Positions 12,511 to 32,890 of a stretch of DNA of 64,000 bases are shown one piece after another. The stretch is from assembly GCA_026005015.1 (NCBI GenBank), contig BPKG01000003.1, positions 124,001-188,000 on the forward strand, read 5' to 3'. The position numbers were made by a program, and so were the translations under genes. The notes beneath the pieces are model-generated. The model made no database searches, was not told the DNA's origin, and saw only the letters and a list, made by a program, of their open reading frames with translations. Each line of letters begins with the position of its first letter. Position 1 is the first letter of the stretch. This DNA is from Burkholderiales bacterium (lineage in GTDB: Bacteria; Pseudomonadota; Gammaproteobacteria; Burkholderiales; UBA6910).

Positions 12511-13482
12511 CTACAGCCAGCCCGCCTTCTTGAAGCGCCGCCACAGCAGCGCGTCCGCCCCCGCCATCACCGCCAGGACCAGGGGATAGCCGAAGGTCCA
12601 GTCCAGCTCCGGCATGTGGCGGAAGTTCATGCCGTAGATGCCGGCGATCATGGTCGGAACGGCGAACAACGCGGCGTAGGAGGCGAGCCGCTTCATCACC
12701 TCGTTTTCCGCCAGGGTGATCATGGCAAGATTGACCTGCATCACGGTGTTCAGCATCTCGCGCCGGCCCTCGATGGTCCGCAGCATCCGCAGCAGGTGAT
12801 CGGAGACGTCGCGGAAGTACTCCTGCATGCCGCCGCACACCGGGGGAGTGCGCCCGCCGTGGAGCTTGCTCACCGCCTCCAGCAGCGGGGCGACCGCATG
12901 CTGCACGATCATCAGGCGGTGCTTGAGGGAATAGAGATCCTCGATGATCCGGCGCGCCGGCGTAGATTGCTGGAAGATGCGCTCTTCGATGCGCTCCAGC
13001 TCGTCCTCGAGCGCCCCGACGATGGGGAAGTAGCGGTCCACCACGCTGTCCATCAGCGCGTAGAGCACGAAACCGGCACCGTACCTGAGAAGCTCGGGCT
13101 CGCGCTCGCAGCGGGCGCGCACGTCCTGGAAGCCCCGCTCGGCGCCGGATCGGATGGATAGCACGTAGTTGGATCCGACGAAGATGTCCACTTCCCCCAC
13201 GGTGAGCTCGCCGTCATCGCGCATCTCGATCACCTGCAGCACCACGAACAGGGAATCGCCATATTCCTCGATTTTGGGCCGCTGGTGGCCGTGGCGGGCA
13301 TCCTCCACGGCGAGCTCGTGCAGGTTGAATTCCTCCTGCATCTGGGAGAGCTCTTGCGGAGTGGGGTCCTTGAGCGCCACCCACACGAAGCCGCCGGGTT
13401 TGACCAGATAATCGCTGATCCTCTCTACGGGGAGATCGGCAAGCTTTCGACCGTCCTGATAGGCAACGCAGTTGATGAGCAT
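12511..13482 (-). CDS. corA: Magnesium/cobalt transporter CorA family protein
   Basis: 323 residues. The C-terminus has two transmembrane helices with the signature IYGMNFRHMPELDW in the loop between them. The long acidic, helical N-terminal cytoplasmic domain includes RIIEDLYSLKHRLMIVQHAV. CorA is a pentameric inner-membrane channel for Mg2+ and Co2+/Ni2+. It is convergent with the nitronate monooxygenase gene across 72 bp. No ion-sensing leader was recognised upstream. Confidence 0.95.
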   Translation of the reverse strand: MLINCVAYQDGRKLADLPVERISDYLVKPGGFVWVALKDPTPQELSQMQEEFNLHELAVEDARHGHQRPKIEEYGDSLFVVLQVIEMRDDGELTVGEVDIFVGSNYVLSIRSGAERGFQDVRARCEREPELLRYGAGFVLYALMDSVVDRYFPIVGALEDELERIEERIFQQSTPARRIIEDLYSLKHRLMIVQHAVAPLLEAVSKLHGGRTPPVCGGMQEYFRDVSDHLLRMLRTIEGRREMLNTVMQVNLAMITLAENEVMKRLASYAALFAVPTMIAGIYGMNFRHMPELDWTFGYPLVLAVMAGADALLWRRFKKAGWL

Positions 13483-13602
13483 AGGCGGGCTGGCACCGAT
13501 TCGGGGGGCGAAGAAGAAAAGGCAACCGCCGCCTGCGCCTTGTGCGGGGGGAAGGCGCGGGCGCGGGAATTCCAGAGGCCGGGGAGTGCACCCCGCGCCG
13601 GA

Positions 13603-13959
13603 TCAAACGATAAGGGCGACCAGCAGGACCACCAGGATGATGATGAGGAGATCCCGGACGCTCAGATCGCCGCCCGCCGGCAGGGTGTTGATCCTTTCGG
13701 ACACCATCCTGACTTCCTCGGCGGTCATGGCGTCTACGCGCTTTTTCGCCAGCTCGGGCTCGACCCCCAGGGCCTTGAGTTTTTCCCGGGCCTCGTCCCG
13801 GTCGAGGACGCCCTTAAGCTGCTCGCGCTGGACCTCTACGCCGGCGGGATCCAGGAGCCGCTCGGTCGAGACGATTTCCGCCTGCCCGGCGACGCTCTGA
13901 AGCGCGAACATCGACCCCGCCAAGAAGCGGCTGCAAAAAGCAGGCACACGCAATGCCAT
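13603..13959 (-). CDS. PA2779 family protein (small membrane protein)
   Basis: 118 residues. An N-terminal hydrophobic segment ends near GQAEIVSTERLL. A charged helical middle follows (EQLKGVLDRDEAREKLKALG), and a C-terminal transmembrane helix (LLIIILVVLLVALIV) ends the protein. This arrangement matches the PA2779 family of unknown function. Family members often neighbour a PA2778-type cysteine peptidase, which is absent here. The start is supported by GGAGGAT eight bases upstream of the ATG. Longer upstream frames lack the conserved N-terminus. Confidence 0.8.
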   Translation of the reverse strand: MALRVPAFCSRFLAGSMFALQSVAGQAEIVSTERLLDPAGVEVQREQLKGVLDRDEAREKLKALGVEPELAKKRVDAMTAEEVRMVSERINTLPAGGDLSVRDLLIIILVVLLVALIV

Positions 13960-14060
13960 CTTGATCCTCCCTATTGGACGGTGACAAGGCGATGCCATGT
14001 TAACCCCAACCCGGCCCGTATTTCCAGGCTCCCGCCAAAAGCCCTTGGTCCCTTCCCGGC

Positions 14061-14327
14061 TCAGCGCGGTGAATTGACTCCCTCGTTCTTGAGCTTGCGC
14101 AGGATCAGGTAGATCTCGTCCTTGAGCTTGAGCCGCCGTTTCTTCATCGCTTCGAACTCGAAGTCTTCGAACGGCTTGTCGTTTTCCTCGATGTCCACGA
14201 TCTCCGCGTTCACTTTTTCGTACTCGTCGAACAGGTGCGCGAGATGGGGATCCCGCTCCCTGAGCTCGTGGATGAGGGGGACGAATTCCGGAAACTCGTG
14301 ATCCAGGTCGTGGGGAAGAACTCGCAT
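14061..14327 (-). CDS. YdcH family protein (DUF465)
   Basis: 88 residues, mostly helical and highly charged: FPEFVPLIHELRERDPHLAHL, then EYEKVNAEI, and MKKRRLKLKDEIYLILRK at the end. This is the DUF465/YdcH pattern, a short antiparallel helical hairpin of unknown function. The ATG at 14327 gives the family-typical MRVLPHDLDHEFPEF start. It lies 101 bp upstream of the PA2779-family gene on the same strand. Confidence 0.85.
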   Translation of the reverse strand: MRVLPHDLDHEFPEFVPLIHELRERDPHLAHLFDEYEKVNAEIVDIEENDKPFEDFEFEAMKKRRLKLKDEIYLILRKLKNEGVNSPR

Positions 14328-14497
14328 ACTGGCCTCCCGTGTCCATCGGAACCTGCACGCCGGGGTGGGGTCCGGCGCCAGACAGCATAACGCCGGCGAG
14401 GCGACCCGACCAACCGGGCACGACCGGAAGCCCCCGCCGCGAGCGGGGCGCCCTTTCCCTCCGCGGGGAGCGGGAAGACCGGGGCTGGCCCACGCGC

Positions 14498-14803
14498 CTA
14501 TTTCTTGTTTTCGGCGAGCTGGGCGATCAGCCACTGAAGCTCACGGTCCACGATGGCGTGGGAGACCTCCACCCCTTGGGCGTACGCGATCACTTCCTCG
14601 GTGCTCAGGATGATGGATTTGGAACCCCGGGGGCTTTCCACGGTGACGCGGTGATGCTTCGCCCCCGGCAACCATCCAGCTTCATCCCACACGGGCTCGC
14701 CCCGCAACGCAACCCCCGCCTGCCTGGCCAGCGCGACCAACTTGCGCGAGATCTCTTTGGCTCCCAGTTTGGCCAGCTCGCTTGCCTCGGGCCTGGTGTC
14801 CAT
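14498..14803 (-). CDS. Hypothetical protein, 101 aa
   Basis: I do not recognise this family. The protein starts MDTRPEASELAKLG and is soluble-looking, with an alternating basic/hydrophobic pattern, a central VTVESPRGSKSIILSTEEVI and a helical C-terminus (VDRELQWLIAQLAENKK). There are no Cys-rich motifs, signal peptide or membrane helix. It is co-directional with the DUF465 gene, 170 bp upstream of it. Composition and the intact frame suggest a real gene. Confidence 0.6.
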   Translation of the reverse strand: MDTRPEASELAKLGAKEISRKLVALARQAGVALRGEPVWDEAGWLPGAKHHRVTVESPRGSKSIILSTEEVIAYAQGVEVSHAIVDRELQWLIAQLAENKK

Positions 14804-15139
14804 GGCTACGCGGGTAGGAATTTTTCGGACTCGAGGGGTGCAACAATAAGCATCCGCGGCAGGGAACCCCCATCACCACCTGCCCGGCGATGAAACAAAC
14901 TTCTCCTTTCAATTATTTAGACTGTTTATGGGGCAGAAATTCCCGCGAATCCCCGTTCGCCCGCGAACCTGCCGCCGGAAGGAGAAGGGCGCCCGGGGGC
15001 GGCCGCGGTCTAAGGCACCCGGGCAGCCGCCGGACAGTCTAAGGGCGTGAAAAGGGCCGGACGCTGCCCCGGCATGTCCATCATCGGGGTGTGGCGGTAC
15101 CCCAGGCCCGGCCCGGGCGTAACGAAACGGAGGAGAAGT
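14804..15139. other. Divergent intergenic region upstream of FmdB gene
   Basis: 336 bp. A short AT-rich island at about 14905-14935 is the best place for promoters in this GC-rich gap, but I cannot fix a -35/-10 pair. The octamer GTCTAAGG occurs twice further on, in a GC-rich setting. No coding frame with family resemblance seen. Confidence 0.35.
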
Positions 15140-15304
15140 ATGCCGATCTACGAATACCAGTGCCGGGAGTGCGGCGAGAAGTTCGAGCGCTCCGAGCACA
15201 TAGCCGAGCACGGCCGTGAGAAGCCCCGCTGCCCCAAGTGCGGGGGTGACAAGGTGGAGCCGCTCCTCACGCCCTTCTTCGCCAAGACCTCCCGAAAGAG
15301 CTGA
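15140..15304 (+). CDS. FmdB family zinc ribbon protein
   Basis: 54 residues. MPIYEYQCRECGEKFE and RCPKCGGDKVEPLL supply two CxxC pairs of a zinc ribbon, and the C-terminal FFAKTSRKS is a common ending in this subgroup, so the protein is complete. FmdB-type ribbons are small putative regulators or nucleic-acid-associated proteins. GGAGGAG sits just upstream of the ATG. The next open frame continues in the same reading frame directly after its TGA. Confidence 0.88.
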   Translation: MPIYEYQCRECGEKFERSEHIAEHGREKPRCPKCGGDKVEPLLTPFFAKTSRKS

Positions 15305-15778
15305 AAACCCCGCCAGGCGTGCTGGTTCGAGCGGGTCGCGAAGCAGGAGCGCCCCTACACCGGCGCCGTGATCGGCGGCATCGCGGGCGGGCTCCTGGGC
15401 CATCAAGTGGGCAAGGGAAGCGGCAAAACCCTCGCCACCGCGGCGGGGGCCGTTACCGGCGCCCTGGTGGGTGATCACTTGGCGAACCGGGACCGGGCCC
15501 CCGGCTACCGGGATGTGAAACGCTGCCGCACGGTGGAGCACGTCCGGCAAGTGCACGACGGCTACGAGGTGGTCTACCGCCACGCGGGCCGGGAGCACGT
15601 GACCGTCCTGCCCCACCCTCCCGGACCTACGGTGCGCATCCCGGTCTCCGTCCACGCGGTCCACGTCCATCCGGCGCATCCCTTTCCTCCCGGCTTGTAC
15701 AAGCACAAGGTCAAGCACAAGGAAAAGCACAAGCACGGGGACTACGAGTACGAATACGAGTACGAGTGGGACGATTGA
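15305..15778 (+). pseudogene. Glycine-zipper 2TM domain protein lacking its N-terminus
   Basis: Directly after the FmdB stop, in the same frame, the DNA encodes QACWFERVAKQERPYTGAV and then IGGIAGGLLGHQVGKGSGKT, the glycine-zipper part of a family of outer-membrane-type proteins. Full-length members begin with a signal peptide and about 50 residues before this Cys-Trp motif; both are missing. The only starts are internal (GTG at 15368), giving 136 residues without an export signal. The conserved YRDVKRCRTVEHVRQVHDGY follows. The tail is His/Lys-rich and ends in repeated Glu-Tyr. It is probably a truncated gene left by a deletion. Confidence 0.65.
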
Positions 15779-16323
15779 AGCCCGCCCGCCGGGCGCCGGT
15801 CACTCCGGGTCGCCCGGCCTCTCTTTGTCGCGCACTTCGAATCGGGTCTCCCCTCGATCGATCAGGGGCGCCGGATCTCCGCCGTCATTACCGGCCTCTT
15901 GGCCCGTGGCGGCGGAGAGCCTCCCCGGGACGGGCAGGCAATCGGCGGCACTGAACCACTGGCGGTGGGACGGCGCGCGGTGGTGCAATGCGCAACCCCG
16001 GCGCCGCCGGGCCCTGAACCGCGCCCGCGGCGGGAGGTACGGCACGCCCCGGGGCTTCCCCGAACGCAGCTGGCGGGTACGAAACCCGGTGGGGAGGCGG
16101 ACGGAGAGGACCTGCCTGGCCGGATCCGGGCAGCGCTCGCAGGGGGTACGGTGTTTTCAGCCGGTGCGGCTAGCCCCGGGGCGGGGCGGTGGGACGTTGG
16201 ACAACGGGGCAGAACTTCCGGCTCTTGCGCCCTCCGGTATGAGTCTTGTGGACCCCCAGGGCCAGGGAAGCGGTTGGCCTTTGGGCTGGTTGAGCCAAGG
16301 AGGACTGCATTTTCGCCAGCGCC
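15779..16323. other. Gene-poor GC-rich region
   Basis: 545 bp with no convincing gene. Overlapping open frames on both strands reflect high GC and show no family motif. A GC-rich hairpin, CCGGG-TCG-CCCGG at 15805-15817 followed by CCTCTCTTT, could be a weak terminator for the FmdB/glycine-zipper transcript. The rest lies downstream of the convergent 2OG oxygenase gene. Confidence 0.35.
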
Positions 16324-16977
16324 TTATTCTTCTCCCCAAAGGGGCCGGCTCAACTCTTCGGCGTAGCGCGGGAACATGATGTTGAAGCTCAGGCTCACCC
16401 GCTCTTCCGCGCTCGCGTTCTCCGGCACCGAATGGGGCAGCCAGGCAGGGAAGAGAAGCAGCATCCCCGGCCGCACCTGGATTACCGCCAGGTCGGTGTT
16501 CTCCCGGGTGAGCTCCGTCACCGGAGGACGGATCACCCCGGCCTGGGGCCTCGGATCGTGGAAGTAAATGGTGTCCGCGCCCGCCGGAGTGCGGACGTAG
16601 TAGACCCCGCTCAGGAAGTTGTTGGGGTGGTGGTGCACGGGGTGGGCCGCCCCGGGGGCGAGCACCGTGGCCCAGCAGCCGGTCACCTGGAACTCCGCCG
16701 CCCCCACCTTGAGAAAAGTCAGCACCCCATGGCCCGCCAGCTCGATGATCTCCACCAGCGCCCGCAGCTCGGTCCGCTTGTGCAGCCCATAACCGGACTG
16801 CCAGCCCTGGCCGCGGGCGAGGGGCGGCAACCTCCGGCGCCCTTCCTCCAGCACCCGGGTCACCGCCGCCTGGATCGGCCCGGAGGTCTCCTCCTTGAGC
16901 TGGAACTGCCACACCATCGCGGGAAACAGGGCGTGAAGATCCGTCGCCGCGAGGTGGGGTTTGAGCCTGGCGATCAT
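16324..16977 (-). CDS. TIGR02466-type 2OG-Fe(II) oxygenase family protein
   Basis: 217 residues starting MIARLKPHL. The jelly-roll core includes HPVHHHPNNFLSGVYYVRTP, the metal-site region with clustered His, then TIYFHDPRPQAG and GMLLLFPAWLPHSVPENAS carrying the distal His, and ERVSLSFNIMF. This matches the TIGR02466 family of putative 2-oxoglutarate/Fe(II) hydroxylases of unknown substrate. An upstream in-frame start at 17058 would add 27 unconserved residues and is rejected. It is an isolated gene facing the gene-poor region. Confidence 0.82.
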   Translation of the reverse strand: MIARLKPHLAATDLHALFPAMVWQFQLKEETSGPIQAAVTRVLEEGRRRLPPLARGQGWQSGYGLHKRTELRALVEIIELAGHGVLTFLKVGAAEFQVTGCWATVLAPGAAHPVHHHPNNFLSGVYYVRTPAGADTIYFHDPRPQAGVIRPPVTELTRENTDLAVIQVRPGMLLLFPAWLPHSVPENASAEERVSLSFNIMFPRYAEELSRPLWGEE

Positions 16978-17174
16978 AGCGCCACCGGAACCGGGACGGG
17001 CAATCTTCGCCCCAGGGCGCACTACCCGTCCTATTCCAGTCAAGCAAATCTGGACCAAGTTGCAACCGCGGCCCGCCTGGCCCGGGCCGGGTTGGAAACC
17101 AGCCGGATCAAGGGATTTGCCCGGCCTGTCCGAGAGGGCTTCCCAGGGTCGGCCGGTATTTCTCCTTGACGGGT

Positions 17175-17560
17175 CGGAGCGACTTTCCTAGTTTTAAAGC
17201 AGGCGAGGAAGCGCGCGGTCCTGCTTTCCGCCGCTCCGGGCAGAGCACACGGATCTCTCTCGACCGCCTGGAGTTTTGCGCTGCACATCGAGGCACGACG
17301 TGCCGGTCGAGAGGTCGTGCAACAGTCGCAGCGCCGCGCACGCGATTTCCGTGCGACGAGAAAAGCCGCATGAGTTCCCCGCTCTCTTGCGGGGAGACAG
17401 CTTGCACATATGGCCGCCGCCTGAAACGCGGCCTGGTCCGCGGGGCGATACCGACCGGTTGTGCGGTCTAACGTGCAAGCCGGGGCCGCAAGCACCTCCA
17501 TGAGCTCGTGGGGGTCAAGGCTCCAGGCCCGGGGACGGAAGCCCTGCCCCGGGCCTTTCA
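17175..17560 (+). other. Stem-rich intergenic block, candidate structured RNA or leader
   Basis: The 752-bp gap between the 2OG oxygenase gene and pepN holds many perfect inverted repeats: CGGAGCG 17175-17181 with 17232-17238; AAAGCAGG 17196-17203 with 17220-17227; CTCTCGACCG 17257-17266 with 17304-17313; GGCAC 17292-17296 with 17300-17304; TCCCCGC 17376-17382 with 17389-17395; GCTTGCAC 17400-17407 with 17473-17480, enclosing GGCCGC 17412-17417 with 17428-17433. It ends in a terminator-like hairpin. A promoter-like TTGACG (17166) and TAGTTT (17189) are 17 bp apart. I found no tmRNA tag, RNase P or 6S signature. It could be a free RNA or a pepN leader. Confidence 0.35.
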
Positions 17561-17563
17561 TTT
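17525..17563 (+). terminator. Terminator-like hairpin upstream of pepN
   Basis: AGGCCCGGGG (17525-17534) pairs perfectly with CCCCGGGCCT (17547-17556) around a 12-base loop and is followed by TTCATTT. The U-rich tail is only on the plus-strand side, so it would end a rightward transcript about 170 bp before the pepN ATG. Confidence 0.5.
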
Positions 17564-17729
17564 GGAGCGCTTTCCGGCCTTCGTCCCCCATGGCCGCGTC
17601 TTCCCTCCCGGCGCCGGCTATGCAAAGATTTCCGCCGCCCGGAACTCATGCTGGCGCGCCCGAGTCAACCCAACGCGGCCGGGTGGCATTCCCGTTCCGT
17701 TTCTTCGCACGACAACTCGACGACTTCCC

Positions 17730-20399
17730 ATGCGCGACCCGACTCCGAAGGCCATCTATCTCAAGGACTACACTCCGCCCCCCTTCCTGGTGGACGCCGT
17801 CGACCTGGACATCGATCTTCGTGACGACCATGCCCGGGTGCGGGCGCGACTCGACCTTCGCCGCAATCCCAGGGCCGGCGCCTCCAGTGGGTTGGCACTG
17901 GACGGGGACGAGCTCGCGCTGGAGTCCGTGCGGCTGGATGGCCGCCCCCTCAGCGAAGGGGAGTACGTGCTGAAGGATTCCCAGCTCCTCATCCCCGGGG
18001 CGCCGGATGCCCTCACCCTGGAGACGGTGGTGCGCATCCATCCCCATCAGAACACCCAGCTCATGGGGCTTTACGTTTCCAAGGACGGGTTCTTCACTCA
18101 GTGCGAGCCGGAGGGTTTCCGCCGCATCACTTTCTTCATCGACCGGCCGGACGTGATGGCCCGTTACACCACCACCCTCCATGCCAGCAAGACGGAGTGC
18201 CCCTGGCTTCTCTCCAACGGCAACCTGATCGCCCAGGGGGAGGAAGAAGGAAATCGCCATTGGGCCAGATGGGAGGATCCGTTCCCTAAGCCTTCGTACC
18301 TCTTCGCCATGGTGGCGGCCAGGCTCGACAAGCTGGAGGACACCTTCGTCACCCGCTCGGGCAAGCGGGCGAAGCTGCAGATCTACGTGGAGCCCGGCAA
18401 GCTGGACCAGGCGGGCTTCGCCATGCAGGCGCTCAAAAAGGCGATGAAATGGGACGAGGATACCTTCGGCCTGGAGCTGGACCTGGACCAGTACATGATC
18501 GTCGCGGTGGGCGACTTCAACATGGGGGCCATGGAGAACAAGGGCCTCAACATCTTCAACACCAAGTACGTACTGGCCCGGCCCGACATCGCCACCGACC
18601 AGGATTTCCGGCACATCGACCAGGTGGTGGCCCACGAGTACTTCCACAACTGGACCGGAAACCGGGTGACCTGCCGTGACTGGTTCCAGCTCTCGCTGAA
18701 GGAGGGCCTTACCGTGTTCCGCGACCAGGAGTTCACCGCGGACCTGTACTCCCGCCCGGTCCAGCGCATCCGGGACGTGCGCCACCTGCGCGCCGTCCAG
18801 TTCCCCGAGGACGCGGGTCCCATGGCCCACCCGGTGCGCCCCCAATCCTACATGGAGATCAGCAATTTCTACACCGCCACCGTGTACGAGAAGGGCGCGG
18901 AAGTGGTGCGCATGCTCCAAACCCTGCTCGGCAAGGAAGGGTTCCGCAAGGGCATGGACCTCTACTTCCAGCGCCACGACGGCCAGGCCGTCACCTGCGA
19001 TGATTTCGTGCGCGCCATGGCCGATGCCAACGGCATGAACCTTGCCCAGTTCATGCGCTGGTACGACCAGGCGGGCACGCCCGTGCTGGACGTCACGGAC
19101 CATTACGACCCGGCGAGCCGGCGCTACGCCCTCACGGTGAAGCAGTCCTGCCCGCCCACGCCCGGCCAGCCGGAGAAGCTGCCGTTCCACATTCCCCTGG
19201 CGGTGGGACTGCTGGATCGGGACGGCAAAGACATTCAGCTCCGGCTCGAGGGCGAGCCCCCCGCGCCCCGCTCCCCGGACGGCACCACCCGTGTGCTCCC
19301 CATCACCCGGCCCGAACACCGCTTCGTCTTCGTGGACGTGCCTGAGAGACCGGTGCCCTCCCTCGCCCGAGGCTTCTCCGCGCCGGTCGACGTGCGCTAC
19401 CCCTATAGCAGAGAGGCCCTCACCCATCTCATTGCCCACGACACGGATCCCTTCAACCGCTGGGACGCGGGCCAGCGCCTGGCCACCGATCTCATCCTCC
19501 AGGGCATCGAAGCGCTGAAGGCCGGCCGCGAGCCGGCGGTGCCGGAGGCCTTTGTCCGAGCCATGGCCCGGCAGCTCCAGGGAGAAGACGGACACGGACC
19601 CCGGGATCCGGCCTTCGCCGCGGAAGCCCTGTCGCTCCCCGAAGAGAGCTTCATCGCTGAGCGCATGGAGGTGGTGGACCCGGACGCGATCCACGGCGTG
19701 CGCACGGGCCTCGCCCGCACCCTGGCCGAACGCCTGCACGGCGAGTTCATGCACGCCTACCGCGCCCAGGCGGTGCCGGGCCCGTACCGCCCGGACCCGG
19801 CTTCCGCCGGCAAGCGGGCGCTGCGCAATTTGTGCCTCGCCTATCTGGCCGAGACCGAGGACCCGGAGGCGCTGCGCCTCGCCTTCGTCCAGTTCGAAAC
19901 CGCCGACAACATGACCGACGCCCTGGCGGCGCTTTCCATCCTCGCCCACTTCGACTGCCCCGAGCGGGAGCGGGCGCTGGAAGCGTTCTACGCCCGGTGG
20001 AAGGACGAGCCCCTGGTGGTGGACAAGTGGCTGCGGGTGCAGGCCGTCTCCCGCCTTCCGGGGACGCTGGAGAACGTCAAGCGCCTCACCGAGCACCCGG
20101 CCTTCTCCCTGCGGAACCCGAACAAGGTGTACGCCCTGATCGGGGCGTTCAGCATGGGCAACCACGTGCGCTTCCACGCCGCCGACGGCAGCGGCTACCA
20201 GTTCCTCGCCGACCAGGTGATCGTCCTGGACAAGCTCAATCCCCAGGTGGCGGCGCGCCTCGCCCGGGCGTTCGACCGCTGGCAGAAGTTCGATGAAGGG
20301 CGCAAGGCCCATGCCCGGGCAGCCCTGGAGCGCATCCGGGACACGGCCGGTCTCTCCAAGGACGTGGCCGAGATCGTCACCAAGGCGCTGGGCGATTAG
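17730..20399 (+). CDS. pepN: Aminopeptidase N (M1 metallopeptidase)
   Basis: 889 residues, close to the E. coli enzyme. The substrate-binding GAMEN motif lies in NMGAMENKGLNIFN; the zinc site is HEYFHNWTGNRVTCRDW with the distal Glu in SLKEGLTVF (HExxH-x18-E). The C-terminal half is the helical domain typical of proteobacterial PepN. It is a cytosolic zinc peptidase that removes N-terminal residues from peptides. The ATG at 17730 opens MRDPTPKAIYLKDYTPPPF, the conserved start; 74 in-frame codons upstream lie in the terminator-hairpin region and are not part of the protein. Confidence 0.96.
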   Translation: MRDPTPKAIYLKDYTPPPFLVDAVDLDIDLRDDHARVRARLDLRRNPRAGASSGLALDGDELALESVRLDGRPLSEGEYVLKDSQLLIPGAPDALTLETVVRIHPHQNTQLMGLYVSKDGFFTQCEPEGFRRITFFIDRPDVMARYTTTLHASKTECPWLLSNGNLIAQGEEEGNRHWARWEDPFPKPSYLFAMVAARLDKLEDTFVTRSGKRAKLQIYVEPGKLDQAGFAMQALKKAMKWDEDTFGLELDLDQYMIVAVGDFNMGAMENKGLNIFNTKYVLARPDIATDQDFRHIDQVVAHEYFHNWTGNRVTCRDWFQLSLKEGLTVFRDQEFTADLYSRPVQRIRDVRHLRAVQFPEDAGPMAHPVRPQSYMEISNFYTATVYEKGAEVVRMLQTLLGKEGFRKGMDLYFQRHDGQAVTCDDFVRAMADANGMNLAQFMRWYDQAGTPVLDVTDHYDPASRRYALTVKQSCPPTPGQPEKLPFHIPLAVGLLDRDGKDIQLRLEGEPPAPRSPDGTTRVLPITRPEHRFVFVDVPERPVPSLARGFSAPVDVRYPYSREALTHLIAHDTDPFNRWDAGQRLATDLILQGIEALKAGREPAVPEAFVRAMARQLQGEDGHGPRDPAFAAEALSLPEESFIAERMEVVDPDAIHGVRTGLARTLAERLHGEFMHAYRAQAVPGPYRPDPASAGKRALRNLCLAYLAETEDPEALRLAFVQFETADNMTDALAALSILAHFDCPERERALEAFYARWKDEPLVVDKWLRVQAVSRLPGTLENVKRLTEHPAFSLRNPNKVYALIGAFSMGNHVRFHAADGSGYQFLADQVIVLDKLNPQVAARLARAFDRWQKFDEGRKAHARAALERIRDTAGLSKDVAEIVTKALGD

Positions 20400-32446: not shown

Positions 32447-32482
32447 TCCCTTGCGGAGCTGGGCAGGTTCCAGAGCAGAAAC

Positions 32483-32509
32483 AAAAACCCCGGGGGATGC
32501 CCGGGGTTT
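32483..32509 (-). terminator. Rho-independent terminator of the cold-shock gene
   Basis: AAACCCCGGG (32485-32494) pairs with CCCGGGGTTT (32500-32509) around a five-base loop. Read on the minus strand it is followed by a run of T (TTTTTGTTT), 27 bp after the csp stop. It may also stop the convergent EAL gene. Confidence 0.85.
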
Positions 32510-32535
32510 CGGCTACAACGTTTTTTTCCCGCGCT

Positions 32536-32739
32536 TCAGGCGGCCTGGATGTTGGACGCCTGCAGCCCCTTGGGGCCGCGGGTTACCTCGAAGCTCACCC
32601 GCTGGCCTTCCTTAAGGGTCTTGAAGCCCTGTCCCTGGATGGCGGAGAAATGGGCGAAGAGATCTTCGCCGCCGCCGTCGGGGGTGATGAAGCCGAAGCC
32701 TTTAGCGTCGTTGAACCACTTGACGATACCGGTTGCCAT
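32536..32739 (-). CDS. Cold-shock protein (CspA family)
   Basis: 67 residues: [18 protein letters not shown], then DLFAHFSAI and a closing [16 protein letters not shown]1 (KGFGFI) and RNP2-like (DLFAHFS) motifs define the cold-shock OB fold that binds single-stranded RNA/DNA as an RNA chaperone. A consensus-like promoter 120-150 bp upstream gives a leader of about 115 bases, as is common for csp genes, and a strong terminator follows. Confidence 0.97.
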
Positions 32740-32861
32740 TTACAGTCCTTTTCAACAAATCAAACGAAAGCGGGCGATTCCCGCACCCTCGATGCCTGAA
32801 TCGCAAGACTGCAAACCGCCAAACGGGTATCGCACAACTTGGAATCCGACAACGAGCCGCC

Positions 32862-32890
32862 TTTGTACGCGGTTTCCGGGCCGGAGTCAA
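32862..32890 (-). promoter_or_regulatory. Sigma-70-type promoter of the cold-shock gene
   Basis: TTGACT (32890-32885) and TACAAA (32867-32862) are separated by exactly 17 bp on the minus strand. Transcription from about 32855 would leave a leader of about 115 bases before the ATG at 32739. Confidence 0.7.

What the first reader, a model, noticed from the sequence alone, without database searches (positions are those of the whole stretch)
17175..17560. Intergenic block with at least seven perfect stems ending in a terminator: candidate new structured RNA
A 752-bp gap before pepN contains seven perfect inverted-repeat stems of 5-10 bp packed into about 300 bp, plus a 10-bp terminator-like hairpin. 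GCACGAC (17293-17299) can also pair with GTCGTGC (17314-17320), which would break the GGCAC hairpin, so the fold may switch. A promoter-like TTGACG-17-TAGTTT (17166-17194) lies at its start, giving a transcript of about 360 bases. It lacks the tmRNA tag and RNase P core motifs I know. It could be a free regulatory RNA or a terminating leader of pepN.
Basis: partly seen in the sequence, partly recalled or inferred. Interest (0 to 1): 0.6.

Follow-up and report, generated by a model that had tools for sequence, protein, structure and literature searches.

The report
Orphan hairpin-rich leader before pepN
A strongly folding stretch of about 190 bases with a terminator-like end sits between what looks like the promoter of the peptidase gene pepN and the gene itself; no relative turned up in the genomes searched, so it is at most a lineage-specific leader or small RNA rather than a new conserved RNA family.

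Summary
The hairpins, the alternative pairing and the promoter-like pair exist as described, but the number of perfect stems is ordinary for DNA of 66% G+C (17; shuffles 13.5 +/- 3.6; 62 of 300 reach it). Only the 3' half folds clearly better than shuffles (17366-17562 z -4.0, 17371-17562 z -4.96); 17196-17361 does not (z -0.23), and without the terminator-like hairpin the 3' half drops to -2.67. No codon signal, no Rfam match here; 6S, tmRNA and RNase P lie elsewhere. TTTCTCCTTGACGG occurs exactly once in each of the two genus genomes held, both times before pepN: probably the pepN promoter. The sister species has about 420 bp less between it and the gene. No relative by DNA in 3 other family and 273 other class genomes, none by a single-sequence structure model in 398 other order and 368 other class genomes (limited sensitivity). 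Best reading: a lineage-specific, probably terminating pepN leader that may release a short RNA. Low interest.

The parts
16324..16977 (-). divergent 2OG-Fe(II) oxygenase gene (upstream boundary of the gap)
   Evidence: ORF; Pfam PF13759 E 7.5e-29
17159..17194 (+). probable pepN promoter: TTTCTCCTTGACGG at 17159-17172, TAGTTT at 17189-17194
   Evidence: 14-base string exact once in G000 and once in G002, both before pepN; local alignment score 33, reached by 2 of 1000 mononucleotide shuffles. Not reported by the consensus scan
17195..17361 (+). 5' part of the extra segment; stems present but no excess folding (includes the proposed switch at 17292-17320)
   Evidence: 17196-17361 z -0.23
17371..17562 (+). 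strongly folding element: hairpin 17375-17396, branched stem 17400-17480, hairpin with paired ACCTCC 17482-17524, terminator-like hairpin 17525-17556
   Evidence: z -4.96, 0 of 200 shuffles; energies. In the fold of the longer leader the branched stem is replaced by long-range pairs
17525..17563 (+). terminator-like hairpin (about -26 kcal/mol) with tail TTCATTT
   Evidence: not among the two sites listed by the scan, probably because its perfect stem leaves a loop of 12 and the scan allows 8
17641..17721 (+). leader next to pepN, with two stretches complementary to the block (17641-17651 with 17368-17378; 17707-17721 with 17306-17320)
   Evidence: weak: 115 of 1000 shuffles hold an exact 11-base inverted repeat at this distance; the longer inverted alignment is reached by 3 of 500
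17730..20399 (+). pepN, aminopeptidase N (M1 family)
   Evidence: ORF; Pfam; 84% identity over the first 301 residues in the genus mate G002

Best explanation
The segment is a lineage-specific part of the pepN 5' leader. Transcription starts at the promoter shared with the sister species (TTGACG at 17166), runs through about 365 bases, folds into the stable 3' element and is at least partly stopped at the hairpin 17525-17556. pepN is then expressed by read-through, or from a second, weaker start close to the gene, while the stopped product is a short structured RNA. Shown: shared promoter sequence, a much shorter promoter-to-gene distance in the sister species, excess folding of 17371-17562, no codon signal. 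Inferred: transcription start, termination, read-through and any effect on pepN.
For: TTTCTCCTTGACGG occurs exactly once in G000 and once in G002 and lies before pepN in both. In G002 TTGACG is 142 bp from the pepN start and the gap to the preceding ORF is 174 bp; in the window the distance is 564 bp. The 3' element has z -4.96 and is more stable on the + than on the - strand (-107 against -97.5 kcal/mol; z -4.96 against -2.73). The folds of 17306-17721 (z -4.63, 0 of 60 shuffles) and 17196-17735 (z -3.61, 0 of 40) are also low, while the next 540 bases, inside pepN, give +1.78. The gene upstream is divergent, so a + strand terminator here is most simply explained by a transcript begun in the gap. 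Five frames in the block lack the codon signature of the genes compared.
Against: No transcript data. TAGTTT is a weak -10 and the scan reports no promoter. The tail TTCATTT is short and interrupted, and the scan does not list this hairpin, while it lists two others in the gap (17171-17185 and 17681-17697; 0.7 +/- 0.9 expected). Without the hairpin the fold signal is modest (z -2.67), over a stretch chosen after the fact. If the RNA continues to pepN, the predicted fold changes and the branched stem 17400-17480 is lost to long-range pairs. No relative found, not even in the genus mate.
Confidence: 0.42

Rival explanations
1. A free-standing small RNA of about 190-360 bases with its own promoter and terminator, recently arisen, independent of pepN.
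For: Stable element ending in a terminator-like hairpin in a divergent gap; a further 167 bp remain between the hairpin's tail and pepN, room for a separate pepN start (inference).
Against: The only promoter with comparative support is the one shared with pepN of the sister species; no relative found in the searches made.
Confidence: 0.25
2. Non-functional G+C-rich intergenic DNA, with or without one real terminator, whose structure is a by-product of composition and chance.
For: Stem numbers at chance; 5' part z -0.23 and much of the signal in one hairpin; no relative found within genus, family or the samples of order and class.
Against: z -4.96 with 0 of 200 shuffles for 17371-17562 and the lowest tile of 100 in the window, although the stretch was chosen after the fact.
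Confidence: 0.25
3. Remnant of a mobile element or of a rearrangement that inserted between promoter and gene; 17306-17450 and 17580-17721 would be the arms of an old inverted repeat.
For: About 420 bp more than in the sister species; long inverted alignment (score 52, reached by 3 of 500 shuffles); the ORFs that precede pepN also differ between the two species.
Against: No second copy in the genome, no match in the plasmid and phage collections, best flanking direct alignment at chance (108 of 1000 shuffles).
Confidence: 0.08

Closest known systems
Terminating (attenuated) mRNA leaders and leader-derived small RNAs of bacteria
   Same: probable gene promoter, long folded leader, terminator-like hairpin before the gene
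   Different: no known ligand-binding class found, no conservation found, no transcript data; a leader peptide was not specifically tested beyond codon statistics
anti-hemB (Burkholderia RNA 7, Rfam RF02837)
   Same: general layout: hairpin with a CCUCC stretch, then a G+C-rich hairpin with a T-rich tail; one of three sub-threshold matches in the gap (15.1 bits, E 1)
   Different: far below the gathering score (49.5 bits); here the CCUCC lies in a stem, in the family's consensus in a loop

Membership tests
anti-hemB RF02837 | covariance-model score at or above 49.5 bits | tested here: not met
   15.1 bits, E 1
any Rfam 15 family | match at gathering score at this place | tested here: not met
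   the only match in the window is cspA at 32481-32884
6S, tmRNA or RNase P RNA | model match at this place | tested here: not met
   each found over its cut-off elsewhere in the genome; no match of these here at E up to 10
conserved structured RNA (new family) | homologues with compensatory changes | tested here: not met
   no homologue found by DNA or structure model, so covariation could not be tested; sensitivity limited (single-sequence model, capped candidates per genome)
attenuated leader / terminating 5' UTR | transcript from the gene's promoter with a 3' end before the gene | not testable with these tools
   promoter similarity with the sister species found; transcript ends need RNA data
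attenuated leader / terminating 5' UTR | intrinsic terminator: stable G+C hairpin plus T-rich tail | tested here: inconclusive
   hairpin about -26 kcal/mol, tail TTCATTT interrupted; not listed by the scan
protein-coding gene | codon usage and G+C by codon position like the genome's genes | tested here: not met
   log-odds -0.49 to -0.84 per codon for five frames, against +0.61 and +0.44 for two training genes and +0.56 and +0.17 for two frames outside the training set

The most novel reading that the evidence does not exclude
A newly arisen, species-specific structured RNA of about 190-360 bases that was built into the leader of an otherwise conserved peptidase gene and controls it by termination, or by switching between the local fold of 17371-17562 and long-range pairing with the leader next to the start codon.
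Probability: 0.12. Interest if true: 0.4.

Novelty: new member of a known kind. Interest (0 to 1): 0.17.

Why it matters
If transcribed, it would be one more lineage-specific structured leader and a small example of how fast regulatory RNA can appear between a conserved promoter and its gene. It does not open a new class: no relative was found to compare it with.

Tried and rejected
Known RNA: whole-window Rfam scan and a permissive scan of the gap gave no family here (three chance-level matches). A housekeeping RNA missing from the genome: 6S, tmRNA and RNase P are elsewhere; SRP RNA was not looked for on its own. Coding or decayed gene: four frames in the gap gave no Pfam match over a cut-off (one DUF7089 match at E 0.34), and five frames no codon signal. 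Repeated or mobile element: no second copy, no plasmid or phage match, flanking direct alignment at chance. Integron recombination site: the GTCTAAC string lies on the inner side of the stem, not at its outer ends as I recall for such sites, so dropped (memory, no call). Structure-model matches in G002 (three: 17.4 bits at E 0.63, then 14.7 and 13.5): the two best overlap what I judge to be coding frames and align poorly; the third and the two further weak ones in the own genome (14.8 bits, the minus strand of the terminator-like hairpin itself, and 14.1) were not followed into their ORFs. DNA matches of 17-45 bases in relatives were taken as chance; L007 and L009 look like coding sequence by eye. 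Similarity of the block to the RNase P RNA of this genome: at chance (28 of 200 and, for the reverse strand, 173 of 200 mononucleotide shuffles). Whether a long gap before pepN is usual in relatives was not counted.

Full report
Where it lies. The window is part of contig C3 of a 3.38 Mb genome, 95% complete. The gap 16978-17729 separates a divergent 2OG-Fe(II) oxygenase gene on the minus strand from pepN on the plus strand.

The stems. A script listed all perfect Watson-Crick stems of at least 5 bp with loops of 3-30 in 17175-17560: 17 stems, 8 of them non-overlapping. Dinucleotide-preserving shuffles give 13.5 +/- 3.6 and 6.5 +/- 1.3; 62 and 65 of 300 shuffles reach the observed values, and 53 and 55 of 165 window tiles do. 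'Seven stems in 300 bp' is therefore expected in DNA of this composition. Stems of 7 bp or more (4; 10 of 300 shuffles, 6 of 165 tiles) and the longest stem (10 bp; 8 of 300, 8 of 165) are somewhat unusual.

The fold. 17200-17562 folds with z -3.08 on the plus and -2.70 on the minus strand. Of 100 tiles of 363 bases over the window (plus strand, 20 shuffles each) the one at 17281-17643 is the lowest, z -3.33. The signal is uneven: 17196-17361 z -0.23; 17366-17562 z -4.0; 17366-17524, without the terminator-like hairpin, z -2.67. For 17371-17562, z is -4.96 with 0 of 200 shuffles as stable; its minus strand gives -2.73, 2 of 200. These limits were chosen after seeing the fold, so the z values flatter the case. 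Fixed steps of 192 bases through the gap give values between +0.52 and -4.36, the lowest at 17411-17602, and -2.66 at 17363-17554. Mean probability of the predicted pairs of 17371-17562 is 0.88, with 39 of 68 pairs above 0.9.

The longer leader. 17306-17721 gives z -4.63 (0 of 60 shuffles) and 17196-17735 z -3.61 (0 of 40); the 540 bases that follow, inside pepN, give +1.78 and the leader of G002 -1.41. In the predicted fold of 17196-17760 the branched stem 17400-17480 is not kept: its arms pair with the stretch before pepN, and so do 17306-17320 (13 of 15 bases, with 17707-17721) and the start of 17368-17378 (with 17644-17651). An 11-base exact inverted repeat at such a distance arises in 115 of 1000 shuffles; the longer inverted alignment of block and leader (score 52) is reached by 3 of 500. 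So the fold of the RNA would depend on where it ends, which is either a possible switch or a sign that the prediction is loose.

The promoter. TTTCTCCTTGACGG at 17159-17172 recurs exactly in the only other genome of the genus among those searched, G002, before pepN. With up to two mismatches the pattern has 27 matches in G000 and 44 in G002 (reversed-pattern control 16 and 12), but only one exact match in each and none in G001 and G003. The local alignment of the two promoter regions scores 33, reached by 2 of 1000 mononucleotide shuffles; the stretch next to the pepN start aligns weakly, 51 of 1000. TAGTTT is a poor -10, and the consensus scan reports no promoter. In G002 the distance from TTGACG to the pepN ATG is 142 bp; here it is 564 bp. 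About 420 bp are thus extra in this species, or lost in the other. What precedes differs too: in G002 a ParA-like ORF and, before it, a CorA-like one; in the window the CorA-like ORF lies at 12511-13482 with several ORFs between it and pepN (the names ParA and CorA are mine from the sequences, not from a search).

Relatives. DNA searches gave no match longer than 45 bases beyond the locus itself in 4 genomes of the family, own included, or in 274 of the class, own included. In the latter 17 genomes had a match at E <= 0.01; the 16 others have matches of 20-34 bases (at most two candidates were scored per genome). Blastn of the gap against the loci held at that time gave, at E <= 0.01, three copies of the locus itself and two short matches in its own genome; some of those loci reach only a short way upstream of pepN. 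Plasmids and phages: no match. A structure model made from this one sequence found, beyond itself, only weak matches in the family (best 17.4 bits, E 0.63); the two best fall in what I judge to be coding frames. It found no other genome at E <= 0.05 among 399 of the order, own included, nor at E <= 0.02 among 369 of the class, own included. In these two runs at most six candidates per genome were scored, with stricter filters, and the samples overlap in part. A diverged relative could therefore have been missed. With no homologue in hand, covariation cannot be tested.

What it is not. No Rfam family at this place. 6S RNA at C4:238534, tmRNA at C1:634169 and RNase P RNA at C1:1476698 are accounted for. 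Frames in the block show flat G+C by codon position (for example 0.61/0.69/0.63 against 0.70/0.43/0.89 in pepN) and codon log-odds of -0.49 to -0.84, against +0.17 to +0.61 for the four genes or gene parts compared, two of which were in the training set.

How it most likely works. A transcript from the pepN promoter runs into a stable structure that ends with a hairpin of about -26 kcal/mol and the tail TTCATTT. The upstream gene is divergent, so a plus-strand terminator here is most simply explained by a transcript begun in the gap. This gives a terminating leader of pepN, possibly releasing a small RNA. Start, stop and effect are inferred.

Literature. A search for pepN, small RNA and aminopeptidase N together gave 7 papers, 6 listed; judged from titles and the starts of abstracts shown, none is about a pepN leader RNA. 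Two broader searches (12 papers listed; 12 of 116 listed) were also seen only as listings. The start of the abstract of PMC2965389, shown, says that attenuator structures are diverse and rapidly evolving, which fits an orphan leader. No paper was opened.

Verdict. A real but modest feature: an orphan, well-folding, probably terminating leader in one species. The claim of a new conserved structured RNA is not supported.

Noticed in passing
L172 1501-2068 (G000:C1:1476698-1477265), L174, L173: RNase P RNA (class A) is long: 568 bases here, with 150 bases where the model has 2 and 55 where it has 11; the match spans 566 bases in the genus mate G002 and 507 in G001 of the same family.
   Followed up: partly
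32481-32884 (-): cspA thermoregulator leader (Rfam RF01766, 86.6 bits), the only Rfam match at gathering score in the window.
   Followed up: no
13483-17158: The ORFs between the CorA-like gene and pepN differ from the genus mate, where a ParA-like ORF lies between the two (names mine): the neighbourhood has been rearranged.
   Followed up: partly
17059-17099: Imperfect inverted repeat GTTGCAACCGCGGCCCG / CGGGCCGGGTTGGAAAC, 7 bases apart, before the divergent oxygenase gene; possible operator or hairpin. 16979-17198 folds with z -2.09 and -2.25 on the two strands.
   Followed up: no
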